Positions 3,352-49,105 of a stretch of DNA of 49,328 nucleotides are shown in pieces. A program made the position numbers and the translations under genes. Each line of letters begins with the position of its first letter. Within the stretch, counting starts at the first letter, position 1. Location of the stretch: positions 232,501 to 281,828 of the forward strand of contig NW_020312303.1 of the NCBI RefSeq assembly GCF_002999335.1. The letters run 5' to 3'. A model generated the notes under the pieces. The model was given only the letters and a program-made list of their open reading frames with translations. It did not search any database and had not been told where the DNA came from. The DNA comes from Cyclospora cayetanensis (lineage: Eukaryota; Apicomplexa; Conoidasida; Eucoccidiorida; Eimeriidae).

Positions 3352-5400
3352 CTACTGATCCATGGTGTGGTGTACAGGCAGCAGCACTGGGGGAGACTCA
3401 ACGAGGGCAGCGCCTGGAGGAGCACAAGAAGGTTCGTGCTTTGTTGAGCACCCTCGAGGCTGGGAATACAAAGACTTTTGCTGCAACAGCAGTCGCTGCT
3501 GCTGCTGCTGCTGTTGCTGCTGTTGCACCAGATAGCAGGAGAAATCTGGAGAACCTTGTGCCCTGTGAGGCAGAGATTTTTCTTGCCGGATTTGCGTCAG
3601 CGTAGCTGCTGCCGTTTCAGCTGTCGCTACTGAGCTCTCAAATGAATTCGACTTACGATGGAGGAACGAGGCAGGCTGGGAGGCTTCCTCGGAAGACTGC
3701 GGCAGACCATGTCGCTCTTGCTGCTGTTGCTGCTGTTGCTGCTGCATGCCACGCAGTTTCTGCCACCTCTGCAGGGGGTAGCACGGATCCTGCTGCTTCA
3801 CGGAGCGCAGCTGCTGCTGAGCATCCTGCTGCTTGAGGTGCTGCACTTGCTGCTGGAGCTGGTGCTGTCGCAGCTTCTCTGCGTGGTGCATGTACACCGC
3901 ACGGGCATACTCAGCCACGATTTTGTCAGCCTCCGTCGACCTAGCTTCTTGGCATTTGTTGCAGCGGAAGCGCCTTGGAAAATTCACGTTATTGCAGCTG
4001 CTGCAGATCCAGTTGCCAGCCTTGTTCGGCGCAAGGTGTGTGCTGCTGCTGCTGCTGGTGCTGGTGCTGCTGCTGCTGCTGCTCGAGGAGCAGAAGGCAG
4101 CGACAGAGCACAAGGGATCCCCGTAAATCTTCAGAAAAGATGACGGATTCTTGAATTCATCGGGATGTGCGAGCATTTGGGGGCAGCAGAGCTGCTGCAG
4201 CAGCTGCTGCTGTTGGTGTCTCTGCTGCTGCTGCTGCTGCGTAGTCAACGCTGCGTCAGAAGGAGCGCTTTTCCCCAACAAAAGCAGCGCTGCACGCAGC
4301 ACTCCTGCAGCGTACGCCGCTGCTGCATCTAGAGAGGCTGCCGACGAAGCGGGAGCAGCCTGCTGCGGATGCTGCTCGTTGACACCAAACTCTTGCACCA
4401 GAGCGCGAACAAGCGCTTCTGCTCGCATTAGGACTGGCTGCTGCTGCTGTTGTTCATCGCCGTCGCTGCCGCTGCTGCCTCTGCTGTTGCTGCTTCCTCC
4501 TCCCCAGTGGCGCAGCGGAGGGTAGTCTGCAGCTTCGCTTTCTGAGCCGCAGCAGTTGCTGCTGTCGCCGTAGCTGTTGCAGCGCACTGGACCGCCCGAG
4601 GTGTCTCTGCTGCTCACTCCTGGCGCGTTGCCACCATCACAATTCAGCTTGTCTCTGTGCAGCTGCTGCAGCAGCAGATCCCCTGGCTGCTGCTGCTGCG
4701 AAGCTGGCAGAGCGCTCGATAAAGTCTGCTGCATGCCACGTCGCAACGCCTTCGAATCGAAAGAGCGGGGGCAGTGCAACAGCGGCAAAGGATGCGGCTG
4801 ATACTCCACTGGAAAAGAGACTAACCGAAGCCCTTCTCCGTCAGTTGCGAGCACGCTACTGCTGCCGCTGCTGGCGCTGTCTAGACGATCTCCCTGGTTG
4901 CTGCATCTGCTCACGCTGATGCTGTTGGCAGCCGCCGCCACTGCTACGCATGCGCGCGCCGCTTGTTGCGCTGCAGCTGCGGAAGTAGCAGTCTGACTGT
5001 CAAGCCCCATGCTGAGGAAGCCTTCTTTGAGGCGCATGAACTCCGACACGCGCTGCGTGTTTTCTTTGCTTCTTTCTGTCATGCACCTGTTGCAGACAGT
5101 CCGCCGGGGGTAGTTGACGTTCAGGCAGAAGTGACACTGCCAGTTGCCGCCTTCGCCAAGCTTCGGCGCTTCCCGAGGTAAGTCCTTCTTTTCCGGAGAC
5201 ACACAGGGGCTCATTGTCAGCTGGCTGAAACTGGTGCTGCATCCAGCACTGCTTCGGCGGATCGATGTGCGTTCTGCGGCTAGCAGAGGCGACGGAGCAT
5301 CTTCTGCGGACGGAGGCTCAGGCGGGGAATATCCTACTGACAGGCTCTCGGAAGGAATGCCTCTAGAAGCGGGCTGGTGAGGGATCTCCTGTGCTTCCAT
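3352..5400 (-). CDS. RanBP2-type zinc finger protein (two fingers), probable RNA-binding protein
   Basis: This is a single uninterrupted frame. The ATG at 5400 (MEAQEIP) gives 682 residues; the frame is open upstream to 5523, so 41 more residues are possible. Two RanBP2-type fingers are clear. Finger 1 has GNWQC-x2-C, the NVNYPRR core and CNRC (near residue 90 from this start). Finger 2 has GNWIC-x2-C, NVNFPRR and CNKC (near residue 465). The W-x-C-x2-C-x3-N-x6-C-x2-C layout with N-V-N is that of the ZRANB2-like subclass, which binds single-stranded RNA; RNA binding here is inference. Between and after the fingers lie Gln, Ser and Ala homopolymer tracts coded by CAG/CTG runs, probably disordered linkers. 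The sequence after finger 2 (AEKLRQHQLQQQ and on) is Gln-rich and could form a coiled coil. Confidence 0.85.
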   Translation of the reverse strand: MEAQEIPHQPASRGIPSESLSVGYSPPEPPSAEDAPSPLLAAERTSIRRSSAGCSTSFSQLTMSPCVSPEKKDLPREAPKLGEGGNWQCHFCLNVNYPRRTVCNRCMTERSKENTQRVSEFMRLKEGFLSMGLDSQTATSAAAAQQAARACVAVAAAANSISVSRCSNQGDRLDSASSGSSSVLATDGEGLRLVSFPVEYQPHPLPLLHCPRSFDSKALRRGMQQTLSSALPASQQQQPGDLLLQQLHRDKLNCDGGNAPGVSSRDTSGGPVRCNSYGDSSNCCGSESEAADYPPLRHWGGGSSNSRGSSGSDGDEQQQQQPVLMRAEALVRALVQEFGVNEQHPQQAAPASSAASLDAAAAYAAGVLRAALLLLGKSAPSDAALTTQQQQQQRHQQQQLLQQLCCPQMLAHPDEFKNPSSFLKIYGDPLCSVAAFCSSSSSSSSTSTSSSSSTHLAPNKAGNWICSSCNNVNFPRRFRCNKCQEARSTEADKIVAEYARAVYMHHAEKLRQHQLQQQVQHLKQQDAQQQLRSVKQQDPCYPLQRWQKLRGMQQQQQQQQQERHGLPQSSEEASQPASFLHRKSNSFESSVATAETAAATLTQIRQEKSLPHRAQGSPDFSCYLVQQQQQQQQQQRLLLQQKSLYSQPRGCSTKHEPSCAPPGAALVESPPVLLPVHHTMDQ

Positions 5401-5523
5401 CGTCCTAGCGGTGGAAGGAGGAACCGCCTTGGTGCACACACGGCTGGATGCCACGAGCCGCGGATAGGGCAAAAACGTTACACACGCGCGTGCACACAGC
5501 GTAAAATAAAGGGCCTTAAACAA

Positions 5524-7205
5524 AGCAATTGGATTTCAGCGCTTTCGGAGACACCGCCTGTTGCGTTGCTGTGAGCCCGTCAAAAGCTGCTGTGGCTGTT
5601 GCTAGGGAGCGAAGAGGGCAGCGGTTTCTCGGCTGCGGCGCCGGTGGCGCCCTCACCAGGCGAGGAAAAAAACAGCCTCGTACGAAGGGAAATAAGGAAT
5701 AACACTTTCCAAGACAGAATCCGCATCTGTAAAAAGAAGAAACAAGCAACAACTGGGCAGAAGGGTTCAGAGGCGTATTGCTCAAGAGCAACGACCAGCC
5801 GCGAAACAACACGTGCACGGTGCTGCCGCCGCTAGTGTTCAGGTGTATGGGCGGCACACCGCGCATCAGACACAGGCGAATGTGGCGATACATGTGCTTT
5901 ATTCATAAATCTCATGTATCAAAAGCTATGTCTTAAAGCCTACATTTATTCACATCACCACATAGGTATGGCAAAGGTGTCTGAAATTAGGCCCGATTCA
6001 GCCAAAACTGTATCCACTCCAGCAAAACCGCGAAACTGAACCGGTACGCCCTGAAAGCATTCCACAACAAAGAACCTTTTCGGCCGATTTACAAGGCAAA
6101 TTAACAAAGCGTATCCGATTTCTCGAATCGAACACTTTTAGGCTCAAAGTAGAGAGACTTCCTGGCGAAAAGAGACATACAATCCTTGGAACGTGCATTG
6201 CAGACAACAACCGAACCGTCGACCCCAGAGGCTGCCAGCGGTGTCGCTTTCACCCCACGACTCCGAAAGCCAAGAATTTCCACTTACAAAACAAGGTTCA
6301 TCCGCCTCTAACACCATTCAAATCAGACAGATTCCCAAATTCTAGTGGGGCAGACTTCAAGGTGCACACCGAACCGCTAGGCTGGTCTCGATGTTTTCAA
6401 TGGTGTTCTCTGGGGAATTGCCATTCTTCGTGTTGCTGCTAAGCTTGCGTTGGCGCGCATTCCTCGGATATTGCTAATTTCTCTAGCGCACTCAACAGCC
6501 TTTGTTGGTGGACGTCCGTGCGAGCGGCACCTAAGTGCATCCACCAGGAGAAGTAAATGAGGTTTCACGCCACCGAACATTCAGCAAGAAAAAAGCTCTG
6601 CATCCGTGGTTTGCGTTTCCCAACAGGCGGCGGCTTAAGAAATTTTAGCGCATGTATCTCTAGCGTTCTAAATGCAAATGAGCGCAACTTTCTGGAACTA
6701 CATTTTTCTGTATTCTCGACCATACACGCCAGGTTGCAAGCATCTGAACGCTCCTCTACGCACTGCGATTGATATCATCCGCATCTAGTCAGAGTTTTCA
6801 ATCCATGAGACGTGATTTTAGCTCCGGACGTGCGAAGACGCGGTAACCCGCTGTCACCAGATTACTCCGCCGTTCAAACCTCAAGGGATAGTTCATGTAC
6901 CGCGTCGTTACGCATTCAGGAGCGACTAGAACATATAAGCGTTTAGTTATTCCCGCTATTCAAGGAAACTTTGCTGCCGACACCTGTTTCTTCCTTCGTA
7001 TGGCAGCGTTTCCCCGTTCTTCCGTCTTTTCTGGTACAACGCTTAGCCTTCTTCTGCAGTGGGAGTTGCCCCCAGTTCAGCCTGTATCACCGATAAGTTT
7101 TGTACTTTGAAGAAGCATTTGCCGCATTTGACGTACATATTCGTCTGCCATGTGCCTGAAATCATATAGAAAACTGTTTTTCTTAATTTCGTCACAAAAG
7201 TTGTC
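5524..7205. other. Upstream/intergenic region, no gene recognised
   Basis: This is the region upstream of the zinc-finger gene (-) and the 3' flank of the tiny-exon gene (-). Open frames of 60-120 codons occur but show no domain and no phase-consistent splice chain that I could find. Confidence 0.4.
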
Positions 7206-9907: not shown

Positions 9908-12114
9908 CTGAACCGGAGATCGTAGAACGCACACCTTTTCAAGCGCTTTTATGGGTCTGTTAGGGACCTACAGACATCGTCCATTGTTAATGTCTTGTCA
10001 TTCTTTCTGCCAGAGAGGCTTCGCACAGTAAACTGGCGCAGAGCAGCAGCCTGAAAGACAAAAGTCACCGCGCATTACCCAGTACGAAATGAGTGGCTGC
10101 GGACGAGCCTTGTGATTCGCCTAATACGTTAAACAATTTGCGAGAGCGACCGGGAGACACGATACACATATGAATCACGTCTTAGACAGGGAAGCTTTAG
10201 CTACAACACGTAAATAACAGCGTCATGACCATGCAGCCGAGATTGCAAAACGGGGAGGCTTACTGTGGCAAGATTGAGAGAGCGCGCTCCTTCTGCAGAC
10301 AACTGAAACGCAGAGAGTACATTTCAGGCCCTGAAATCTAAGCCTTGCAGGATACATCTTGGATTTTGAGGCTCTGCGCTGATATTCGGTGCAAGTTGAA
10401 ACGCAATCGGAGCAGACCAAGAATGCACGAAATTTTGATCTCAGGGTGGGGAAACCTGTGCCTTGGCAGACCTTTTTGAGAGAGGGCGTGAGCCTTGCGA
10501 TTCGCATTATTCGCGCCTGGGGGAATTCTGTCGTTGTCGAAGGGCTGAGGGGAGCAGCAAAATGTACAGGTTGGCGATTTACGGATAAACAACGGATTCG
10601 AGAGGTGCAAACGGCGCAGAAATTGCGCATCCAAGGGAAAGGAATTGTGAAGGACGCACCGTGGCTCTTCAGTGCATTCACCTTCAGGTTGGTGAAGCTG
10701 TTGCCATTGCAGGCGTTGCGCCTTTAGGGTTTCGAACTCTTCAGTCCATCGCTGCAGCCGCGCAGACCCAAGGCACTTGACAGTGTGTCACGCGACGTTT
10801 CATTTTCAGGCAAAAAAACAGAAAATTTAGCGTTTACGACTTGCCTGCTTGTCATATGGACTTAGTTCTTTCCACAATGTAGAAAGTTCTTTTTGGATAT
10901 CTCCGAGCTGCGGCTGCAGCAAGCGAAAATCCCTAAACTGTGAGTCTTTAGCGCAGCACTAACGACACTGGACGCAGCGCCTCGAAGGAATACAGACGCA
11001 TTAAATAAGCGGTCTTTTCAAGCACTATAAAACAGGTGACGGCTTTGGGCTTTGGGTTGCAGAAGGCTCTAGGATGTAGAGCATGCCTGTTGACTTGCAT
11101 TCTTCTCTACAAGCGCTGCTTTCACCTCCAGCCGCCGCCGAGAGCAGAAGAGCGCAAAGGCGCTTGCGGGCACTCTGAGTGCGCAAAACCGCAAGAAAAT
11201 AATTCGTAGCTCCAGCTGCTTGCAGTTACTGAAGCATCGTAGAGCCGAAACGTTTCATGACTTCGGACTGTCGCTCAGAGAGCCCTACGCTCCAATTTGA
11301 GGTTTACTTGGGTGCCTCCATGACGATGGATGCGTGGTAACCGCAAGAGCTGCTTTTTTGACCGTTGGAGGCTTGGCTTCTATCGCTGGCAGCAATGCAA
11401 CAATCGTGCTGCCGCTGCTGAGGGTGGGCCTGCTCCCTATATGCTAGGGCTGCAATACTGTGGATTCTTCGTAATACTGTTGATAGGCGCCTGTTTCTGC
11501 ACTATTTCGCTCCTGGTAGCGCTGATAAACAAATCATCAGTTGGTCCGCAGACCTGCAGAAGCTTGCAGAGGGGTCAGGAATGTTCACGGAGAAACAGTG
11601 CATGGAGGCGCTTCAATCCAACAGTTTTGAGCCTAGCATTGTAGAAGCGTATTGTGATCACATGTAGCAACGCGCTGTCTGAACTTCTCTGCGTATCGCG
11701 AAGTCTCTGAGTTCGAGCTTGTGTCTTTGGGGTCCACAACCTCAGCACCAACCCCACCATGCTTACCACGGTTTCTGAACTAGGGCATAGGGGTCAAATT
11801 TTGGGCTTTCTCTCCCCTAATCTTTCAAGGATTTTTACAAAATATGTGAAACTCATTGTTTTGGACTTGTGAATCCGAATTTGGGCGGAGATGTGATGGA
11901 CGCATACAGACTTCCTTCCAGTGCTGCAGCAGCAAGAGCGGCCGACTCTGAGCGCAGAAAGCTGCACTAGCAGCAGCTACTGCGGCCATCAAGGACAGGA
12001 GGAGCTAAATTTGCATCTTGTGTCGTGCAAAGCAACAGCAGGGATCGTGAGAAGAGTGTATCACGCACCAAACGCGCCGTGTTCCCTAGCGGCGATCGCA
12101 GCATTGCGATCGAA
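9908..12114. other. Region without assigned gene; upstream of kinesin
   Basis: The stretch at 10223-10727 is open on both strands (152 codons on minus, 112 on plus) but neither product shows a known domain. Sequence nearer 12.1 kb is probably the kinesin 5' flank. The ATG at 12025 is in frame with the kinesin start chosen here. Confidence 0.35.
11330..11644 (+). CDS. Small ORF with one hydrophobic segment (doubtful)
   Basis: A frame of 104 codons has one strong predicted membrane segment in the middle (CGFFVILLIGACFCTISLLV) flanked by basic residues. No homologous family is recognised and no splice neighbours were found. It could be a chance open frame or one exon of a larger gene. Confidence 0.2.
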   Translation: MRGNRKSCFFDRWRLGFYRWQQCNNRAAAAEGGPAPYMLGLQYCGFFVILLIGACFCTISLLVALINKSSVGPQTCRSLQRGQECSRRNSAWRRFNPTVLSLAL

Positions 12115-15100
12115 ATGGCATCCACGCCCGTGCGCGGTGGAGACGGCAGTCCCGAAGGGGAGGCGGCCGCAAAGCGGGTGGCTGTACTTTTGAGGAACGC
12201 CAGCAACTGCAACAGCAGATCATCTGGGGGTACTGTGAGCAGCAGCTGCAGCAGCACATCGCGGCGCGCGAAGCCTAGCAGCACCTCGCAACAGAATCTG
12301 TTGCAGCGCAGCGCGAGCAGCAGCTTGCAGCACAGCCGCAGCAACAGCGGCAGCCAGAGCAGCAGCAGCAAGCCTTCCAGCAGCGGCAAGCCGCTCAGCA
12401 GCAGCAGCGCTTGTGGCGACAGCTGCGCCAGCAACAGCACAGCAGAGAACATCAAAGTGGTAGTGCGATGCAGGCCGATCAACACAGCGGAGCAGCGCAG
12501 CGGCAGCAGCACTGCGGTGCATATTTCTGCCGAGACGCAGCAGGTGTCAGTGCTGCTGCCGACGCCCAGCAGCTACAGGCAGCAGCAACAGCAGCAGCAG
12601 CAGCAGCAGCAACGCAGCAGCAGAGTTTACAAATTCGACGGCGTCTGCCCCGTCAGCGTGCAGCAAGAGGAGCTCTTCAACACGCACGTCAAGCCCCTCG
12701 TAGACCAGGTGAAGCTGATGGCTTTGCGCATGCGACAGGCAGAGGACGTGCAAGTGTCGACGGAAGCGGTATTTTTTTGCAACTTTGCATGCGCTGCTTC
12801 TTCGAGAACACCGCAGCGTCTTCGCAACGGCACGCACGATGCTTGAAGTGCGCTCTCATTCTGCGCGCAGGTGCTAGAGGGCTATAACTGTACACTTTTC
12901 GCATACGGGCAAACCGGCACGGGGAAGACGTATACCATTGAAGGTCCTCAAGATCAGTACGAGCAGTACGTACAGCCGAGGAGCAGCAGCGCATGCAAGA
13001 GCCGCGAAGGCAGCTCCGAGAGCCTGCGCCGGCTCGCCGTGTTAGCAGCGCCTGGTGCCGCCTCCTCTCCGGCTGCTGGCAGCGGCGCAGACAGCAACCC
13101 CACCCTCAACGACGATTCTCTCCGCGAAAGCCTCGAAAACAGAGACGCACGCAGCACTGGCGTCGCGCTGATTCCAGACGCGGGAGTGCTGCCTCGAGCA
13201 GTGGCGTACATTTTTGAACAGCTGCAGCAGAGCAACAGCAGCGACTCCATGCTGCGCTGCAGCTTCATGGAGATATACAATGAGGAGCTCGTCGATCTTC
13301 TCGCCCCTCAAGCGGGCAGCTGTGCGGCTGCCGGCGGCGCAGCAGCAGCAAGCCAACAGCAGCAGCAGCAGCTCAAGCTGCGGATATACGAAGAGCAACA
13401 GGCGGATGCCAACAGCAACTGGATATCCACAAGAGTGCATGGCGCAGTGCGCGTAGAAGGGCTTACCGAGAAAAGGGTTAACAGTCCTCAAGTAAGGCTC
13501 ACAAAGTGTCGTGTAACAGGCAGGAGCTAGCTGAGCTTCATCGAGCTGCGTTCGCGTGTCTTGAAGCATGCTGATAATTCTAAACCTAGCCAGCAAGGTG
13601 ACTAAACGCCTCCTCTAGCGCGCATTCGGCTGCTGCTACGCGCTGCCTGTGATGCTGCTCCTTGCGCGACGATTCGTGCTGCCGCTGCTGCCCTTTGGCA
13701 GCTGAAAAGTATCGCGCTGCTTCTGTGGCTGCCGCTGCTACGCGCTGCTTCAGGAAGTCTTTTCTCTGCTGATGGCTGCGGCACCTCGCCGCAGCTTCGC
13801 GTGTAGTGGCAGCAACGCGCGGAGCAGCAGAAGTCACACCATTTTCTCGCTGTCAGTGTGCATTACCGAATCGCCAAGACTTTCTCCCGCAGACAATTCT
13901 CCTCCTGCTCCTGAAGCTGCTGCGGCAGCTAGCCTTGCTGAGGGGGCGCCTGCCATCACCAGGAGCGCCAGAGAAAGGCAACTGCATCAGGCAGCAGCAG
14001 GAGGGGTTGCTGTGGAGGAAGTCGTAAGGTTGGGCAAGCTAAGCCTCGTTGATCTTGCAGGTATACACGGAGAAACAGCTGCAACAGCAGCAACAGCAGC
14101 AGGAGAAGAGGGAGCTGCTGCCGCTGCTACTGCTGGTTCTGCTACTGCTGCCTCTGCTACTGCTGCCTCTGCTACTGCTGCTTCTGCTACTGCTGCTACT
14201 GCTACTTCTGCTACTGCTGCCTCTGCTACTGCTGCCTCTGCTACTGCTGCTACTGCTACTTCTGCTACTGCTACTGCTGCTACTGCTGCCTCTGCTACTG
14301 CTGCTTCTGCTACTGCTGCCTCTGCTACTGCTGCTTCTGCAGCAAATCAAGACGAGTCGAACCTCTGCAGAGGCGCCGCTCGTTAAGCAGCTGCAGCAGT
14401 CGCAGTAGCACCCCAGGTGCAGCAGGATCAGCCCACAAAGGGCGCACAGGAGACGTGAAAGGCGTTGCTGCATCGAGCGGCACATTTTTTGCGGTGTGTG
14501 TGGCTCTAGGAAGTGAGAACTTGGAGAGGAGCTGGGGGGGGGGGACGGATCTGACGCGACGCAAGGAAGCCTCTGCCATCAATCAGTCTCTGCTGACGCT
14601 TGGGAGGTGCATAAATGCGCTTGTCGAGAAGAGCGGCTACATCCCTTTCAGAGACTCTAAGCTCACACGCATCTTGCAGGTCAGCTCCCGCGCGTCTCGC
14701 AGGAGAATCAAGATTGAGTGGAGAATTCGCCAGCGGGAGGCTTGTGTGTAAGGCTGTTCAGTCAGGAGGAGTCTTGTCTTGGGAATGTTGCGCACAGGAT
14801 AGCTTAGGAGGCAGCACACGCACATGCCTCATTGCGACTATAGGTCCGACTGCGAACACGCTTGAAGAAACGCTCTGCACACTGGGTAGGTGTGCGCTCG
14901 CTGTCTCGCGACTGCCGCTTCCAAGCCATGCGAGATGCGTGCTCCTGGAGGGTAGGTAGGCGCATGCCTCCTGGGGGTGCTGCAGCCGCTGAGGGGGCTG
15001 CTTGTGCTGCGCTTCCGCGCGCGTGGGAAAGCGATTGCACTCGGAGGCTGCTGCTGCGACTTGCAGATTACGCCTTTAGAGCCAAGAGCGTCACGACTCG

Positions 15101-37015: not shown

Positions 37016-37865
37016 CGCAATCAGAGCTGGGTTTAACAACTTGCAGTTATGCGTCAATTGCATCCTCCTCGATCTTAATGCACGAAGTGCGAAAATTTCT
37101 CACTTCGGTCAACAGAAGTATATGTAATATATGTTGGCCACACGCCTTCATCATAAACCGTATCCTTCCGTATCCTTGTTTTTGTGGGGAGGCACTCGAG
37201 CTTATTTACCTTCTAGATGGTTTCCACGAGGTAGACTACACTGAGCAAGCAGGCAAATATGCTTGGAGCTTTTAGAAGATTTTGCCGATTCCAGTGCGTA
37301 GGCAAGTTGGTGCAATAAGTTCAAGAAAGAATGCACAACAATGACGCAATAGGATTGAAGTAAAATGTGTGTTGTACAGCAGTTAATATTGTACTTGTAC
37401 ATACTCATCGATATAACCAGAGTATACATAAAAACCTCAAAACGGTTCACATATAGTGTGCGGAGTTACACTGAACCCACACCTTTACACCATGTGAAAT
37501 GCTAGTGCATATGTTCCAAGTTTTTCTGAACAGCATTTCGATTTTCTCTTCAATGAATGCCGTTGTGCCACACAGGCATCCTTGCCCCACAAGAAATTTG
37601 TGTTAGTATATTCCGGGGGATTTAAATCTTAAAGTTGCGAAGTCCTTCCTTGATCACGAGGGCTCCTGCCTTTGCATAGGTCTCCAAGAGCATCTTCGAA
37701 GAGGTGTGCCTCATGACTGCCTGGAAAGCGATATCGCGTAGACACGCAGAAATACTCTGACAGAAATATCACTCCTTCTGTTATTAAGGGCAAATGAACT
37801 AATGCACGCTATCCACTGTTTTGCAGTGGGGTACAGATACTCCAGGATGCACCATTTGGCAAGGC
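37016..37865. other. Intergenic region between convergent DDX56-like and recombinase genes
   Basis: About 850 bp of AT-rich sequence between the stop of the helicase (+) and the last exon of the recombinase gene (-). Short open frames show no domain. Confidence 0.5.
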
Positions 37866-40800
37866 TTAGCCGCCATAGATCAGGCAGCGTAGTGGATAAA
37901 AATGACAATATGCCGCAAAACCGAAGCTGCGCCCAACTATCTGGGAGGGTAAGCGGTTTAGATTCTATGGATCCCGTGCCGAATATTTCCGTTTTCCCGG
38001 CTCGCTGCACTCTCGTCAATTATGTGTGATCCTTCCTCTCTTGCATTGTTTTTCGCTCTGCTGGCCATGTCTGCAACATGCGCTTTCTGCGGGCCACACG
38101 TACCTGTGCCACTGGTAAAGGCACTGGGGGATTCGAAGTGGCAGCAATTGTAGCAAAGGAGTGTCTGTACCGCAACGTGAACACCATAATGTGCACTTGT
38201 ACGAGCGTAAATATCAACTGCATGAGAACAGACACTGCAAAGGCGGCGGTGACTGCGCTTGCGTTTCCCACTAACGCTTTCAAGGAATCGCAACAAGCAA
38301 ACGATGAAGGAAATTCCTTTGACCTGTGATGGCATCAAAGATTATACCGCTTAATGTACATCGTACTATTGAATCCCCAAGAATCACCTCTTCTGGTGGA
38401 AGGGGATGCTTCGGCGCTACTGTACGCATGACCCTTCACCGTCGTTTTAAATAAATACTGCAAAGCGAACTACTAGACCCCTGGTGTAGAACAATGACGA
38501 ATTTTGGCCACCATAAACTTGATGGTTTGTTATGTAACTTGAGATTATTCAATCTCACCTTAGTATGTACGGGAACACCCTACGAGGCTCTCCACAACGT
38601 GTCTCATCGATTCCTGCCCTGTAACGAAACCGAGAAGCATCTTATAAGCAAAAGAAAAAAATGAAAATCTGACACAGCCGCACATAGCCGACTGGCAGTG
38701 GATGATATGTATACAAGCTAGTACGTCATCTGCTCTATAAAGTGTTTGTTAAATCCCTTGCTCACCGATGTGCTGCCGCCTGCAACGCCTTCTTAAAGGA
38801 TCCTGCAACGCCTCAATCAGGACACTAAACACATCTGCTAATACCATTCGAAAGCAGAGCTAAAAGGAGGTGATGTATACAAAACATGATGCCACTTAAA
38901 ATTTCACAAATTGGATATTCAAACAGAGGAAGGCTTCCATCTATCTTAACATGTGAGGCCATGGTTCTATTAGCAATGAATGATCAATGGTGGCATTCGC
39001 GAGCACCGTAGCACGTAAATTCAGCGCCTACGTATGCAAATGACATGCATTTAACCAACACCAGCATAAATCCTTCCGTCAAACCAAGCCTTCAAATTGT
39101 GCAAGGGGACCAGTAATGGTGCTTTACGTATTGGTGTCTTCGTTCGTAAGTTTATTCTGCTACTTCGGCTTCTTATTCCCTCAACGTAAAAGCACAGTCC
39201 ACTAGTTGGCTTTCCCTCTTCTTCCCACCTACAAATAACAATCAGTGGACAAAACTCGAACATGTAAGCGGCGTCGTATTCGACGCGTGAAAGAGTCGTA
39301 CGCTGCCACTTACGCTGGGAACGGTAAGCCTAGCTCTGAAACGCGCTAAATCCTTTTACACAAAAAATAATACTTCACTTCAACATTTTCTGATTGCCTG
39401 CCTCCTTCCGTACAGAAAGCATTCTGAGATTTCTGGAACAACTAGCACATGTCGACAGAGCGTGCGTTCAGCTACTTATTAGGGTGCATCAACGTGGTCG
39501 AGTGCTGTACCAGCGCATCAGTTCTCTCGCAGCCAGATTGGTAAGAGGGATCACTGCCGCGGATGCTGCAGTTTTAGAGCCACGGACCGTTGTCGTCATT
39601 TCCTGCATGTTGATGTCTTCCCATCGCATCGATACTATCTCCGACGGACGAAGACCCGCTCCAATACCAACAGCAAATAAGGCACAGTGCATGGTCTTTG
39701 GCGTAGCTGCCAACAGTAAATACACCTGAGAAGGGATTATTGGCGTATGCAAGAAAGGCGAGAACTCAAGGAGTAGGGATCGTGAGGAGTAACCATATAT
39801 CGTGGAAGTGACGCCAGTGGGCTGCTTCTTAGGTCTGCCGTTTCTTTTGACTTGTACCTTTCAGTCAGAAATTTTGGTATTGGACACCTAATGTAGTCTC
39901 ACATGCCCGTGTGGCAACTGATCTTTATCTAAGGCTGTCTAGAGGCAGCCTCTGCTACGTTTCCCAGGTGAAATGAATGATTGGTCGCACCTCTTCTGCG
40001 GTGAGAGGCACAGAGACCAGCGTGCGCTTGGTGCACCCTCTAATCTTCCGAAAATCGTGAATCCCCTCGAGGCGACGGGTGTGGACCGCATACTTTAAGG
40101 CCGCCAAATATGCCACCTGATGCAAGACCTGAGTCCGCGGGGAACAATTACGTTTCTTTAAAGCCCTGCATCAAGCAGGCAAGAATCAGAAATATTTGCT
40201 AAAATGTAATACGGATGCCCATGTACTCAAATTGCCGTATCGAAGATGAGAGCCAAACTGCAGAAGAATATCCATAAAGCCTCAGCAATGATTCAAAGAA
40301 AAGGTCCACCCAAAAGCATGACACGTTCATTGACTGATAGGCTTCCTCTAGGAAATTTGTTCGAAAGAAAGGGCTGTTGCCATATGTTTATGCTTAGAGA
40401 GCCGTGGTATTGTGCAGAACATTTGGATGCCTTAATGTACAGGTTTTAGTGAATTGACACTAACCGCAAATACTCTTCCCAAACTGCGGCAGAGAGATTC
40501 GCCACTGGTACATCCCCAATAACCTGAACGTACACCGGATATTCAGTATTCTCGCATATACACAAGAGTTCTTTGCACAATTACCACACCACCAACAACA
40601 GTCTCGGTAGGAGCGGCAGCCCAAATCGACCCGCTGGCCTCAGAGCCATTACAAATAATAGCATGCTTCCAATCACAGCAGGACAAACAAAAGCAAATTC
40701 TTCAGCAAAAGTGGCAGCAGCAGAAAACGGCCTCCTCATCGAACCTGTAAAATAGACTGCCAAAATCCACGTTCAACCCTCATTGTGTTACTGCCCACTT

Positions 40801-42272
40801 CTTGCTCCCTGAGCGTTTCCAGAAAATCACTCACACTTGAACATTCCTTAAAATGCTTTGGTGAAAACGGCAAAAATTAAAATGATAATGAATAGCACAC
40901 ACTCTTTGAACGGAGTAAAGGACAAGCACAACGAACAACCCTCACAGCAAATCACGCATACTAGGGGAACGCCTGTAAAACAAGATCTTCACATGCAAGT
41001 TATCATAGTTTCTACACAAGACTCCAGCTGCGCAATTGAAAGAGGACCTCGCGATTGCCTTTCAAAGGTATGAGCTCCGTGTATCTGTACATGCGATGCT
41101 ATGGGACTTGAACCTGAGGGCTCTGCTGCGTTTCTTGGGCAGGTATGGGTATTCGAATGTGTGTATTTCGATTGCAGGCATCAAGTCCTAGCGTAGAATA
41201 AAACCTCCATACCGGAACGCAGTTGCAATCAAGGATGCTCGCGACCCTTACCTGATAGGCCAAAATGCCTTTTCCACGAATTCCCTGAGAGTCTCTTGAC
41301 CAACAGAGCATATCGTAGCCCCGCACTTGGAGCAAAACCGAGCTTCTGATGAAGAGAACAGAATAGCACAAAATCGGAGGCTGCATGAGTTGCGCCACGA
41401 TCCAGCAGCGTCGCAGCAGGATGGAACTCTCACAAACTGGCACTGACCCCAGCTTTCCTCTTCTTTGAAATAGTGTCAAAGTAATGTGCACTTCTGGCTT
41501 GGAACACCACCTAGTTGGCTTCTGCACAAAGCCATGTTTCTAGCTATCATAGGGAGGTTGACATACTGGATGAAAGCCGATGGTTGCACTTGTGACAGCG
41601 GCTGTGAGCTGGTTTACGTGATATCTCCATTTGTGGCTCCTGGACTTTGTTAGCTTCTTGAGAGGCATCAGGAGGTGCAGGAGGTACCTCATTTGGCCTG
41701 ACAAGCGCTAAGAGCTCCTCTAATGATCGCGCTTGCTGCAGACGACTCAGTAGTTCGACCCTTTTCCCCTTGCTGGGCAGCTGTAGCTTTCGACATGCAG
41801 TTCGAAGGCTTGTTATGGGTATGCCAGCCAAAGCATTAGCCCCTGCTCCAGCAGAAGTGGCAGCAAGCGCACCTCCCAAAGCAGTAGCAGGAGGGGCAGC
41901 ACCAACACCATGGGCTGCATTGTCTGCATCAGAAGAACCACATGGCTCTGTGAAGACTTGCGTTGGTATGCCTGCACTCCTCGTCTCACTTGACCACAGT
42001 TTGGATCCAGGTTCTCCCTGGGCAACACCCGGTGTTGCCCAGGCTCGTGGTATTGTTATTCTGTCGGCAATACCAGCTAATGCAATGAGCTCAGCAGCAC
42101 TCAAAAAGGTAAGGCGTCGAGGTAGTCCCTTAAACCGCTTCCGATCTAACGAAAGAAAACCTGCACTTTGCTGCCTGCTACACTTGTGAGTCCCCGCCGA
42201 GCCCGTGGCTTCTGTACTCCTAAGGCGATATACCAAAATATTCAGGAAAAACAGCACAAGTCTGCCTCCCAT
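37866..42272 (-). CDS. SAP-domain tyrosine recombinase (phage-integrase family), multi-exon
   Basis: Exons in order on the minus strand. 42272-41688 has a SAP motif near residues 150-182 (ITSLRTACRKLQLPSKGKR). 41345-41252 includes VKRLSGNSWKRHFGLS. 40570-40465 includes VQVIGDVPVANLSAAVWEEYL. 40165-39992 includes LHQVAYLAALKYAVHTRRLE. 39725-39511 carries box I GIGAGLRPSEIVSMRWEDI and a Lys-bearing hairpin (RGSKTAAS). One starting at 39228 reads EEEGKPTSGLCFYVEG. One ending at 38104 holds RHSFATIAATSNPPVPL. 37940-37866 holds IVGRSFGFAAYCHFYP and a stop. Splice sites and phases agree at 41688/41345, 41252/40570, 40465/40165, 39511/39228 and 38104/37940. This gives SAP, core-binding domain and catalytic domain with candidate Arg, Lys, Arg and Tyr. 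The His of HxxR reads Leu and the usual LGH reads VGR. The 40165-39992 exon is one base short of joining its neighbour in frame (near 40020). Exon edges between 39228 and 38104 are unresolved. Confidence 0.7.
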
Positions 42273-48937: not shown

Positions 48938-49101
48938 AGTTTAGGGTTTAGGGTTTAGGGTTTAGGGTTTAGGGTTTAGGGTTTAGGGTTTAGGGTTTAG
49001 GGTTTAGGGTTTTAGGGTTGAGGGTGTAGGGTTTAGGGTTTAGGGTTTAGGGTCTAGGGTTTAGGGTTTTGGGTGTAGGGTTTAGGGTTTAGGTTTTAGC
49101 G
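48938..49101 (+). repeat. Telomere-like TTTAGGG tandem array
   Basis: About 22 units of TTTAGGG. The first part is perfect; later units are degenerate (TTTTAGGG, TTGAGGG, TGTAGGG, TCTAGGG). This is the apicomplexan telomere unit. Non-telomeric sequence continues for more than 220 bp beyond it to the window end, so in this assembly it is interstitial. Telomere-like heptamers scattered inside chromosomes are a known trait of Eimeria genomes. Confidence 0.95.
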
Positions 49102-49105
49102 TTAG

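What the first reader, a model, noticed from the sequence alone, without database searches (positions are those of the whole stretch)
37866..42272. Nuclear gene joining a SAP motif to a phage-type tyrosine recombinase
At least eight minus-strand exons assemble into SAP, a SAM-like core-binding domain and a tyrosine recombinase catalytic domain, and phases agree at five junctions. Box I (GAGLRPSE) and the terminal AAYCHFYP block are recognisable. A tyrosine recombinase (Int) has been reported in Plasmodium; I know of no description of a SAP fusion. SAP motifs bind AT-rich/scaffold DNA, so the fusion could target the recombinase to chromatin. The N-terminus is hydrophobic and might be a sorting signal, possibly to an organelle genome.
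Basis: partly seen in the sequence, partly recalled or inferred. Interest (0 to 1): 0.87.

Follow-up and report, generated by a model that had tools for sequence, protein, structure and literature searches.

The report
Parasite plastid tyrosine recombinase gene
This is a complete nuclear gene of the gut parasite Cyclospora for a DNA-cutting-and-rejoining enzyme (a tyrosine recombinase) whose Toxoplasma counterpart sits in the relict plastid; it is predicted to be imported there and likely rearranges plastid DNA, and our searches find relatives in algae although a published table calls it specific to the parasite phylum.

Summary
The gene is real and larger than described. Eleven minus-strand exons (42272-37622), GT-AG and in phase at 10 of 10 junctions, give a 556-residue protein identical to Cyclospora cayetanensis LOC34620592. 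The 'terminal AAYCHFYP block' is intronic; the true last exon (37720-37622), carrying the catalytic tyrosine, lies outside the given range. A zinc ribbon between SAP motif and recombinase was missed. One contig only matches in the held assembly.

It is the orthologue of Plasmodium Pf-Int and Toxoplasma TGME49_059230. The latter was published in 2011 as an apicoplast-lumen protein, with the SAP motif in the table. So the fusion is not new, and the organelle guess is the better supported one.

Added here: a conserved zinc ribbon; an alga-side sister clade (Triparma), so it is not apicomplexan-specific; unnamed metagenomic integrases without the ribbon as next relatives; no named piroplasm or Cryptosporidium protein in three searches. 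Likely job: conservative recombination of apicoplast DNA; the site is unknown, and the Pf-Int knockout shows no blood-stage defect. New member of a known kind.

The parts
41567..42272 (-). Exon 1: start codon, hydrophobic N-terminus (residues 3-14), basic low-confidence stretch, SAP motif, first half of zinc ribbon (C226, C229)
   Evidence: splice model identical to P0001; hydropathy; PF02037
41730..41834 (-). SAP motif, residues about 147-181, inside exon 1
   Evidence: PF02037 7.1e-5 on the N-terminal piece, 1.7e-4 on the whole protein, both under the curated cut-off; block pLDDT 94-97 for residues 151-190; coordinates
41252..41345 (-). Exon 2: second half of zinc ribbon (C240, C243) and start of core-binding domain
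   Evidence: PF13240 4.8e-6
40745..40808 (-). Exon 3: core-binding (SAM-like) domain
40465..40523 (-). Exon 4: core-binding domain
39991..40165 (-). Exon 5: end of core-binding domain, linker, start of catalytic domain
39511..39725 (-). Exon 6: box I GLRPSE (R392) and beta-hairpin lysine K417
39128..39228 (-). Exon 7: catalytic domain, LCFY segment
38766..38802 (-). Exon 8: SFKKALQAAAH
38559..38618 (-). Exon 9: RAGID...PYILR, Y501 in place of the first His of HxxR
38104..38164 (-). Exon 10: rest of box II, R504 (codon split by the intron) and H505, PPVPLPVAQ
37622..37720 (-).
37866..37964 (-). 'AAYCHFYP' open frame: intronic, not part of the protein

Best explanation
This is the 11-exon Cyclospora cayetanensis gene, single-copy in the held assembly, for the orthologue of Pf-Int and Toxoplasma TGME49_059230: a 556-residue tyrosine recombinase with a SAP-like motif and a zinc ribbon in front, predicted to be imported into the apicoplast and likely to cut and rejoin apicoplast DNA there. 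Shown by sequence: gene structure, domain order, a full catalytic set (R392, K417, R504, H529, nucleophile Y539, with Y501 where the first His usually is). Shown by others for Toxoplasma only: apicoplast-lumen location. Inferred: the N-terminal hydrophobic helix plus basic stretch act as signal and transit peptide; SAP motif and zinc ribbon grip AT-rich plastid DNA next to the crossover site, as arm-binding domains do in phage integrases; the enzyme forms the usual 3'-phosphotyrosine intermediate and swaps strands through a Holliday junction, either resolving genome multimers or inverting or repairing at the rRNA inverted repeat. The target site is unknown.
For: Model identical to P0001. PF00589 8.5e-17, PF13240 4.8e-6. 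Catalytic set intact in 24 of 24 apicomplexan-side rows and 7 of 7 Triparma-side rows, which argues for selection on catalysis. Predicted fold of residues 248-556 matches XerA, Tn1549 Int, lambda Int and Cre. The Toxoplasma orthologue is in the group colocalising with lumen marker CPN60, and its authors propose a role in apicoplast DNA recombination (PMC3228799, passages). Hydrophobic N-termini in the coccidian, Plasmodium and one Triparma orthologue measured, not in the 3 outer metagenomic integrases measured. No named Cryptosporidium protein (that genus has no apicoplast: abstract of PMC7175588 as listed) and no named piroplasm protein among 39, 53 and 65 hits; piroplasm apicoplast genomes lack the rRNA inverted repeat that P. 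falciparum and T. gondii have (table of PMC7175588), and Cyclospora has it (two copies of 5,244 bp, PMC4495940).
Against: Location and activity of the Cyclospora protein are untested. Pf-Int knockouts grow normally in blood stages and respond normally to UV (PMC3466309), so it is not needed to keep the apicoplast genome there. Recombinant Pf-Int fragments bound DNA without clear sequence specificity; 39% of the captured genomic sequences came from var, rif and stevor-type nuclear families, and no conserved motif was found (PMC3466309 Discussion). Two orthologues do not show the strong hydrophobic start: the MMETSP transcript P0015 (1.3) and Triparma-side P0031 (0.75), and the basic stretch is weak in Toxoplasma (+1) and absent in T. 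strigata (-3). SAP is patchy: none found in P0013, P0014 or P0019. The piroplasm absence is one lineage, so it is not independent evidence about the inverted repeat. The apicoplast genome was not found in the held assembly (no SSU hit), so no target site could be sought.
Confidence: 0.7

Rival explanations
1. The enzyme works in the nucleus on chromosomal DNA, with the SAP motif binding chromatin, and promotes rearrangement of gene families (the reading favoured for Pf-Int in 2012).
For: Pf-Int fragments captured var, rif and stevor sequences, and a Lys/Arg-rich patch could be a nuclear signal (PMC3466309). SAP motifs are common in chromatin proteins (recalled). The window's gene lies about 7 kb from a telomere-type array, though gene position says nothing on substrate.
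Against: The Toxoplasma orthologue is in the apicoplast lumen. The one Plasmodium orthologue scanned alone, P0019, shows no SAP hit at E up to 0.1. The capture used truncated protein and binding was non-specific.
Confidence: 0.12
2. A dispensable relic: an integrase of a former plastid or bacterial mobile element, imported but of little use today.
For: Nearest relatives outside the eukaryotic clade are phage-type integrases; the blood-stage knockout is healthy.
Against: The catalytic set is kept in 24 of 24 and 7 of 7 rows over a split between parasites and algae; core identity to this protein is 67% in Toxoplasma (206 of 307) and 52% in Plasmodium reichenowi (157 of 304).
Confidence: 0.13
3. 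A domesticated eukaryotic YR transposon recombinase (Crypton or DIRS type).
For: It is a nuclear tyrosine recombinase gene.
Against: Only one contig matches in a 43.2-Mb assembly; the PHROGs phage integrase family phrog_1 matches at 7.7e-35; ten introns. No Crypton or DIRS sequence was put in the tree.
Confidence: 0.03

Closest known systems
Toxoplasma gondii TGME49_059230 (Sheiner 2011, PMC3228799)
   Same: Orthologue: SAP motif, zinc-ribbon cysteines, core-binding and catalytic domains in the same order (P0008); signal peptide and apicoplast lumen in the paper
   Different: 1022 residues with long low-complexity insertions; called 'apicomplexan unique/specific', which our searches do not bear out
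Pf-Int, MAL13P1.42 (Ghorbal 2012, PMC3466309)
   Same: Same catalytic set including the His-to-Tyr change; zinc-ribbon cysteines present in the P. reichenowi orthologue P0019 (CKTC...CVYC)
   Different: No SAP hit in P0019; the word 'zinc' occurs 0 times in that paper's main text
Triparma (bolidophyte alga) integrase-like proteins P0036, P0041, P0048
   Same: Sister clade; P0041 has hydrophobic N-terminus, zinc-ribbon cysteines and catalytic set
   Different: Insert of roughly 100-200 residues in the catalytic domain; no SAP hit in P0041; P0036 and P0048 models start inside the recombinase
Archaeal XerA, Tn1549 integrase, lambda integrase
   Same: Fold of residues 248-556; PDB sequence matches 4a8e and 5hxy
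   Different: The matches cover the recombinase part, not the SAP motif or ribbon; bacterial, archaeal or phage proteins with different biology

Membership tests
Tyrosine recombinase / Phage_integrase (PF00589) | Match to the catalytic-domain profile above the curated cut-off | tested here: met
   61.9 bits against 27.1, residues 362-541
Tyrosine recombinase / Phage_integrase (PF00589) | Catalytic R, K, H-x-x-R, H/W, Y | tested here: met
   R392, K417, Y501 in place of first His (H505 nearby), R504, H529, Y539; the first-His position is a variant, Y in 24 of 24 and 7 of 7 eukaryote-side rows
Tyrosine recombinase / Phage_integrase (PF00589) | Strand cleavage and exchange in vitro | not testable with these tools
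   needs biochemistry
Apicomplexan Int (Pf-Int / TGME49_059230 group) | Groups with Plasmodium Int and the Toxoplasma protein in a tree | tested here: met
   16-row clade, 98/89; with Eimeria and Sarcocystidae 99/95
Apicomplexan Int (Pf-Int / TGME49_059230 group) | His-to-Tyr change at the box II position | tested here: met
   Y in 24 of 24 apicomplexan-side rows; reported in PMC3466309
Apicomplexan Int (Pf-Int / TGME49_059230 group) | Apicoplast location | not testable with these tools
   Known for Toxoplasma only; N-terminal hydropathy fits
SAP domain (PF02037) | Profile match above the curated cut-off | tested here: inconclusive
   21.5 bits against 23.9 in this protein; E. flavescens 25.9 and the MMETSP transcript 44.4 pass; 8 of 37 A4 members match at E up to 0.05; fold search of the piece alone uninformative
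Zinc ribbon (PF13240) | CxxC...CxxC and profile match above cut-off | tested here: met
   26.6 bits against 25 in this protein; 3 of 10 proteins scanned pass the cut-off (P0001, P0013, P0015), others with the four cysteines score below it
XerC / XerD | Equivalog cut-off of TIGR02224 / TIGR02225 | tested here: not met
   35.7 and 36.6 bits against 335.15 and 329.6
Crypton / DIRS recombinases | Groups with these elements in a tree | not tested
   no such sequence was included; only one contig of the assembly matches

The most novel reading that the evidence does not exclude
Red-type plastids carry their own dedicated site-specific recombinase: a SAP / zinc-ribbon tyrosine recombinase, taken from a bacterial integrase whose N-terminal domain was swapped for a zinc ribbon, encoded in the nucleus, shared by ochrophyte algae and apicomplexans, acting at the plastid rRNA inverted repeat (flipping or resolving the genome) and lost in piroplasms together with that repeat.
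Probability: 0.25. Interest if true: 0.78.

Novelty: new member of a known kind. Interest (0 to 1): 0.5.

Why it matters
The apicoplast is essential to these parasites, yet how its small circular or concatenated genome is kept in order is poorly known. A conserved recombinase inside it, with a complete catalytic set and an alga-side sister clade, gives a concrete candidate with a traceable origin, and removes the label 'apicomplexan unique'. The substrate question becomes directly testable in laboratory Toxoplasma and in the existing Pf-Int knockout line.

Tried and rejected
Rejected gene joints: my first hand model (typed) had a 5'-extended exon 3 (40846) and wrong joints around exons 7-9; phases failed at exon 2/3, and a micro-exon scan found nothing convincing. 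Comparison with P0001 gave the correct joints, so the model was corrected with the public protein in hand, not found independently of it. The sequences typed for held about 57 residues that are not in the protein; the homologue list was made with that query. The domain results quoted come from P0001 itself, apart from the SAP value, whose N-terminal piece was correctly joined.

Apicoplast genome: RF00177 against the window's assembly found 0 matches (some searches were unanswered), so no target-site search was possible.

Bacterial ancestor: genome contigs gave 4 loci at 23-34%, viral contigs 42 and 34 distant loci; phage records 47 with query P0043 and plasmid records 22 with query P0045, all under 60% identity and none covering 80% of the query.

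Inverted-repeat link: PMC6722601 says the plastid inverted repeat was lost in Chromera and Piridium (passage) and does not name piroplasms there; whether Chromera and Piridium have the gene was not determined, so the link rests on piroplasms alone.
Full report
WHAT IS THERE. The reverse strand of 42272-37622 holds 11 exons totalling 1,671 bp with introns of 147-443 bp; every intron is GT-AG and all 10 junctions agree in phase. The translation, 556 residues, is identical to P0001, the NCBI protein 'uncharacterized protein LOC34620592 [Cyclospora cayetanensis]'. The window is the end of contig C268 of a 43.2-Mb assembly; that contig ends at 281,828, the contig length listed for P0001. A search of that assembly with the recombinase part matched only this contig, exon by exon (8 matches), so the gene is single-copy there.

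The block AAYCHFYP (37866-37964) overlaps none of the 11 exons; it is in the last intron. The real C-terminus, AVMRHTSSKMLLETYAKAGALVIKEGLRNFKI, is exon 11 at 37720-37622, outside the reported range, and carries H529 and the nucleophile Y539. Box II is PYILRHSFAT, made by joining exons 9 and 10. Between SAP and recombinase lies a zinc ribbon, CHKCNHRLSSKARFCSKC, split between exons 1 and 2.

CATALYTIC SET. R392, K417, R504, H505, H529 and Y539 are present and Y501 replaces the first His of HxxR. These seven positions are unchanged in 24 of 24 apicomplexan-side rows and 7 of 7 Triparma-side rows. In the 4 sister rows Y501 holds in 3; in the 33 further metagenomic rows Y501 holds in 30 and Y539 in 32; in 22 viral or other rows position 501 is H in 12, Y in 9 and N in 1. 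The His-to-Tyr change was already reported for Plasmodium and other Apicomplexa (PMC3466309, section 5).

KNOWN ORTHOLOGUES. Pf-Int (MAL13P1.42) was noticed as a phage-integrase domain protein in 2006 (PMC1636048, passages) and characterised in 2012 (PMC3466309; abstract and sections 5, 7 and 12 read): mRNA peaks in schizonts, DNA binding in vitro was not sequence-specific, and the knockout shows no blood-stage growth or UV phenotype. The Toxoplasma orthologue TGME49_059230 was studied in 2011 and listed as apicoplast lumen, with 'SP', 'lambda integrase-like, N-terminal domain, SAP motif profile', 'apicomplexan unique/specific' and Plasmodium homologue MAL13P1.42; the luminal group fully colocalised with CPN60, and the authors suggested a role in apicoplast DNA recombination (PMC3228799, passages). 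The SAP fusion and the organelle are therefore in print. The link between P0008 (Toxoplasma ME49 'site-specific recombinase, phage integrase family protein') and TGME49_059230 is by annotation and the shared Plasmodium homologue; I did not retrieve the locus tag. Searches for print on this subject; in the listings shown, from an open-access library, I saw no later functional study. The word 'zinc' occurs 0 times in the main text of PMC3466309; I did not search the literature for the ribbon by name.

TARGETING. The most hydrophobic 12-residue window near the N-terminus scores 2.1 here, followed by 50 residues of net charge +7. The like holds for E. stiedai (3.1, +9) and P. reichenowi (2.6, +9). 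Toxoplasma (3.0, +1) and Triparma strigata (2.8, -3) share the hydrophobic start but not the strong positive charge; the MMETSP transcript (1.3) and P0031 (0.75) lack a strong one. The three outer metagenomic integrases measured score 0.4-0.7 (20 proteins in all). This is hydropathy, not a trained predictor.

ORIGIN. Three database searches returned 39, 53 and 65 proteins. Beyond coccidia and Plasmodium they include Cardiosporidium, Rhytidocystis (GHVS) and Eleutheroschizon (GHVT; both names from accession prefixes in PMC10304595, passages), an MMETSP transcript, Triparma strigata, T. laevis and T. columacea, and unnamed metagenome proteins. In the careful tree (55 of 94 rows, outgroup chosen by me) 16 apicomplexan-side rows form a clade (98/89), 7 Triparma-side rows (3 named Triparma, 4 unnamed) form another (100/98), the two are sisters (100/95), and the next branch is 4 unnamed metagenomic integrases. 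The quick tree (82 of 94 rows) agrees, with SH-aLRT 94, 98 and 96 for the same three groups. Core identity to this protein: Toxoplasma 67% (206 of 307), Plasmodium reichenowi 52% (157 of 304), T. strigata 48% (139 of 292), P0033 of the sister group 47% (136 of 288), P0045 43% (122 of 283). The Triparma genes sit on contigs of 50, 247 and 331 kb; two exceed the size I recall for ochrophyte plastid genomes, so they are probably nuclear. A CxxC...CxxC ribbon is found in 21 of 24 apicomplexan-side rows; the misses are P0004, with extra residues between the Cys pairs, P0040, which starts inside the recombinase, and P0071, which starts at the second Cys pair. It is found in 4 of 8 Triparma-side rows, of which the other 4 begin inside the recombinase, in 0 of 4 sister rows and in 0 of 33 metagenomic rows. 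The outer relatives begin instead with a different N-terminal stretch of about 90 residues (13 aligned). One algal-looking fragment, P0066, has a hydrophobic N-terminus, zinc-ribbon cysteines and weak Rho_N and SAP hits (0.004, 0.008). So a bacterial-type integrase probably exchanged its N-terminal domain for a zinc ribbon before the alga and parasite lines split or exchanged the gene.

DISTRIBUTION. No hit bears a piroplasm or Cryptosporidium name. Limits: each search scored only the roughly 8,000 candidates sharing most words, and unnamed hits cannot be placed. Piroplasm apicoplast genomes lack the rRNA inverted repeat, which P. falciparum and T. gondii have (6 of 6 piroplasms in the table of PMC7175588, passage), and C. 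cayetanensis has two 5,244-bp copies in a 34,155-bp circle of 78% AT (PMC4495940, passages). This suggests, but as a single lineage cannot prove, a tie between enzyme and repeat.

MECHANISM. Most likely, by family chemistry: two pairs of protomers on two sites, attack by Y539, 3'-phosphotyrosine, Holliday junction, resolution. The SAP motif and zinc ribbon take the place of an arm-binding domain. Substrate inferred: apicoplast DNA, likely multimers or the inverted repeat. The healthy blood-stage knockout is the strongest result against an essential housekeeping role.

NOVELTY. As a gene this is a new member of a known kind. What is added is a correct gene structure for the window (already in the public model), the conserved zinc ribbon, the alga-side sister clade that contradicts 'apicomplexan unique', and the metagenomic integrases next to it.

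Noticed in passing
48939-49103: About 23 copies of GTTTAGG (TTTAGGG telomere type), imperfect, followed by about 225 bp of other sequence to the contig end: a degenerate telomere-type array near the end of the contig, not its very end.
   Followed up: partly
3352-5535 (-): 727-residue open frame with two RanBP2-type zinc fingers (PF00641 2e-13) and polyglutamine-rich stretches.
   Followed up: partly
11971-12846 (+): Start of a kinesin motor domain (PF00225 7.6e-7, 28.9 bits, just under the 29.3 cut-off) with CAG-repeat-rich coding sequence.
   Followed up: no
P0034, P0036, P0041, P0042, P0048 (algal-side homologues): Insert of roughly 100-200 residues in the middle of the catalytic domain; P0034 carries PF07453 and PF22083, which I recall as NUMOD-type parts of homing endonucleases.
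   Followed up: no
P0006, P0011, P0012, P0035, P0004 (public Eimeria and Cyclospora models): Several public models of this gene look truncated or keep intron sequence (P0012 ends by reading into intron 5; P0004 has extra residues inside the zinc ribbon).
   Followed up: partly
P0066 (metagenome, 305 aa): Hydrophobic N-terminus, zinc ribbon and then a SAP or Rho_N-like motif, in the opposite order to the parasites, before the core-binding domain.
   Followed up: partly
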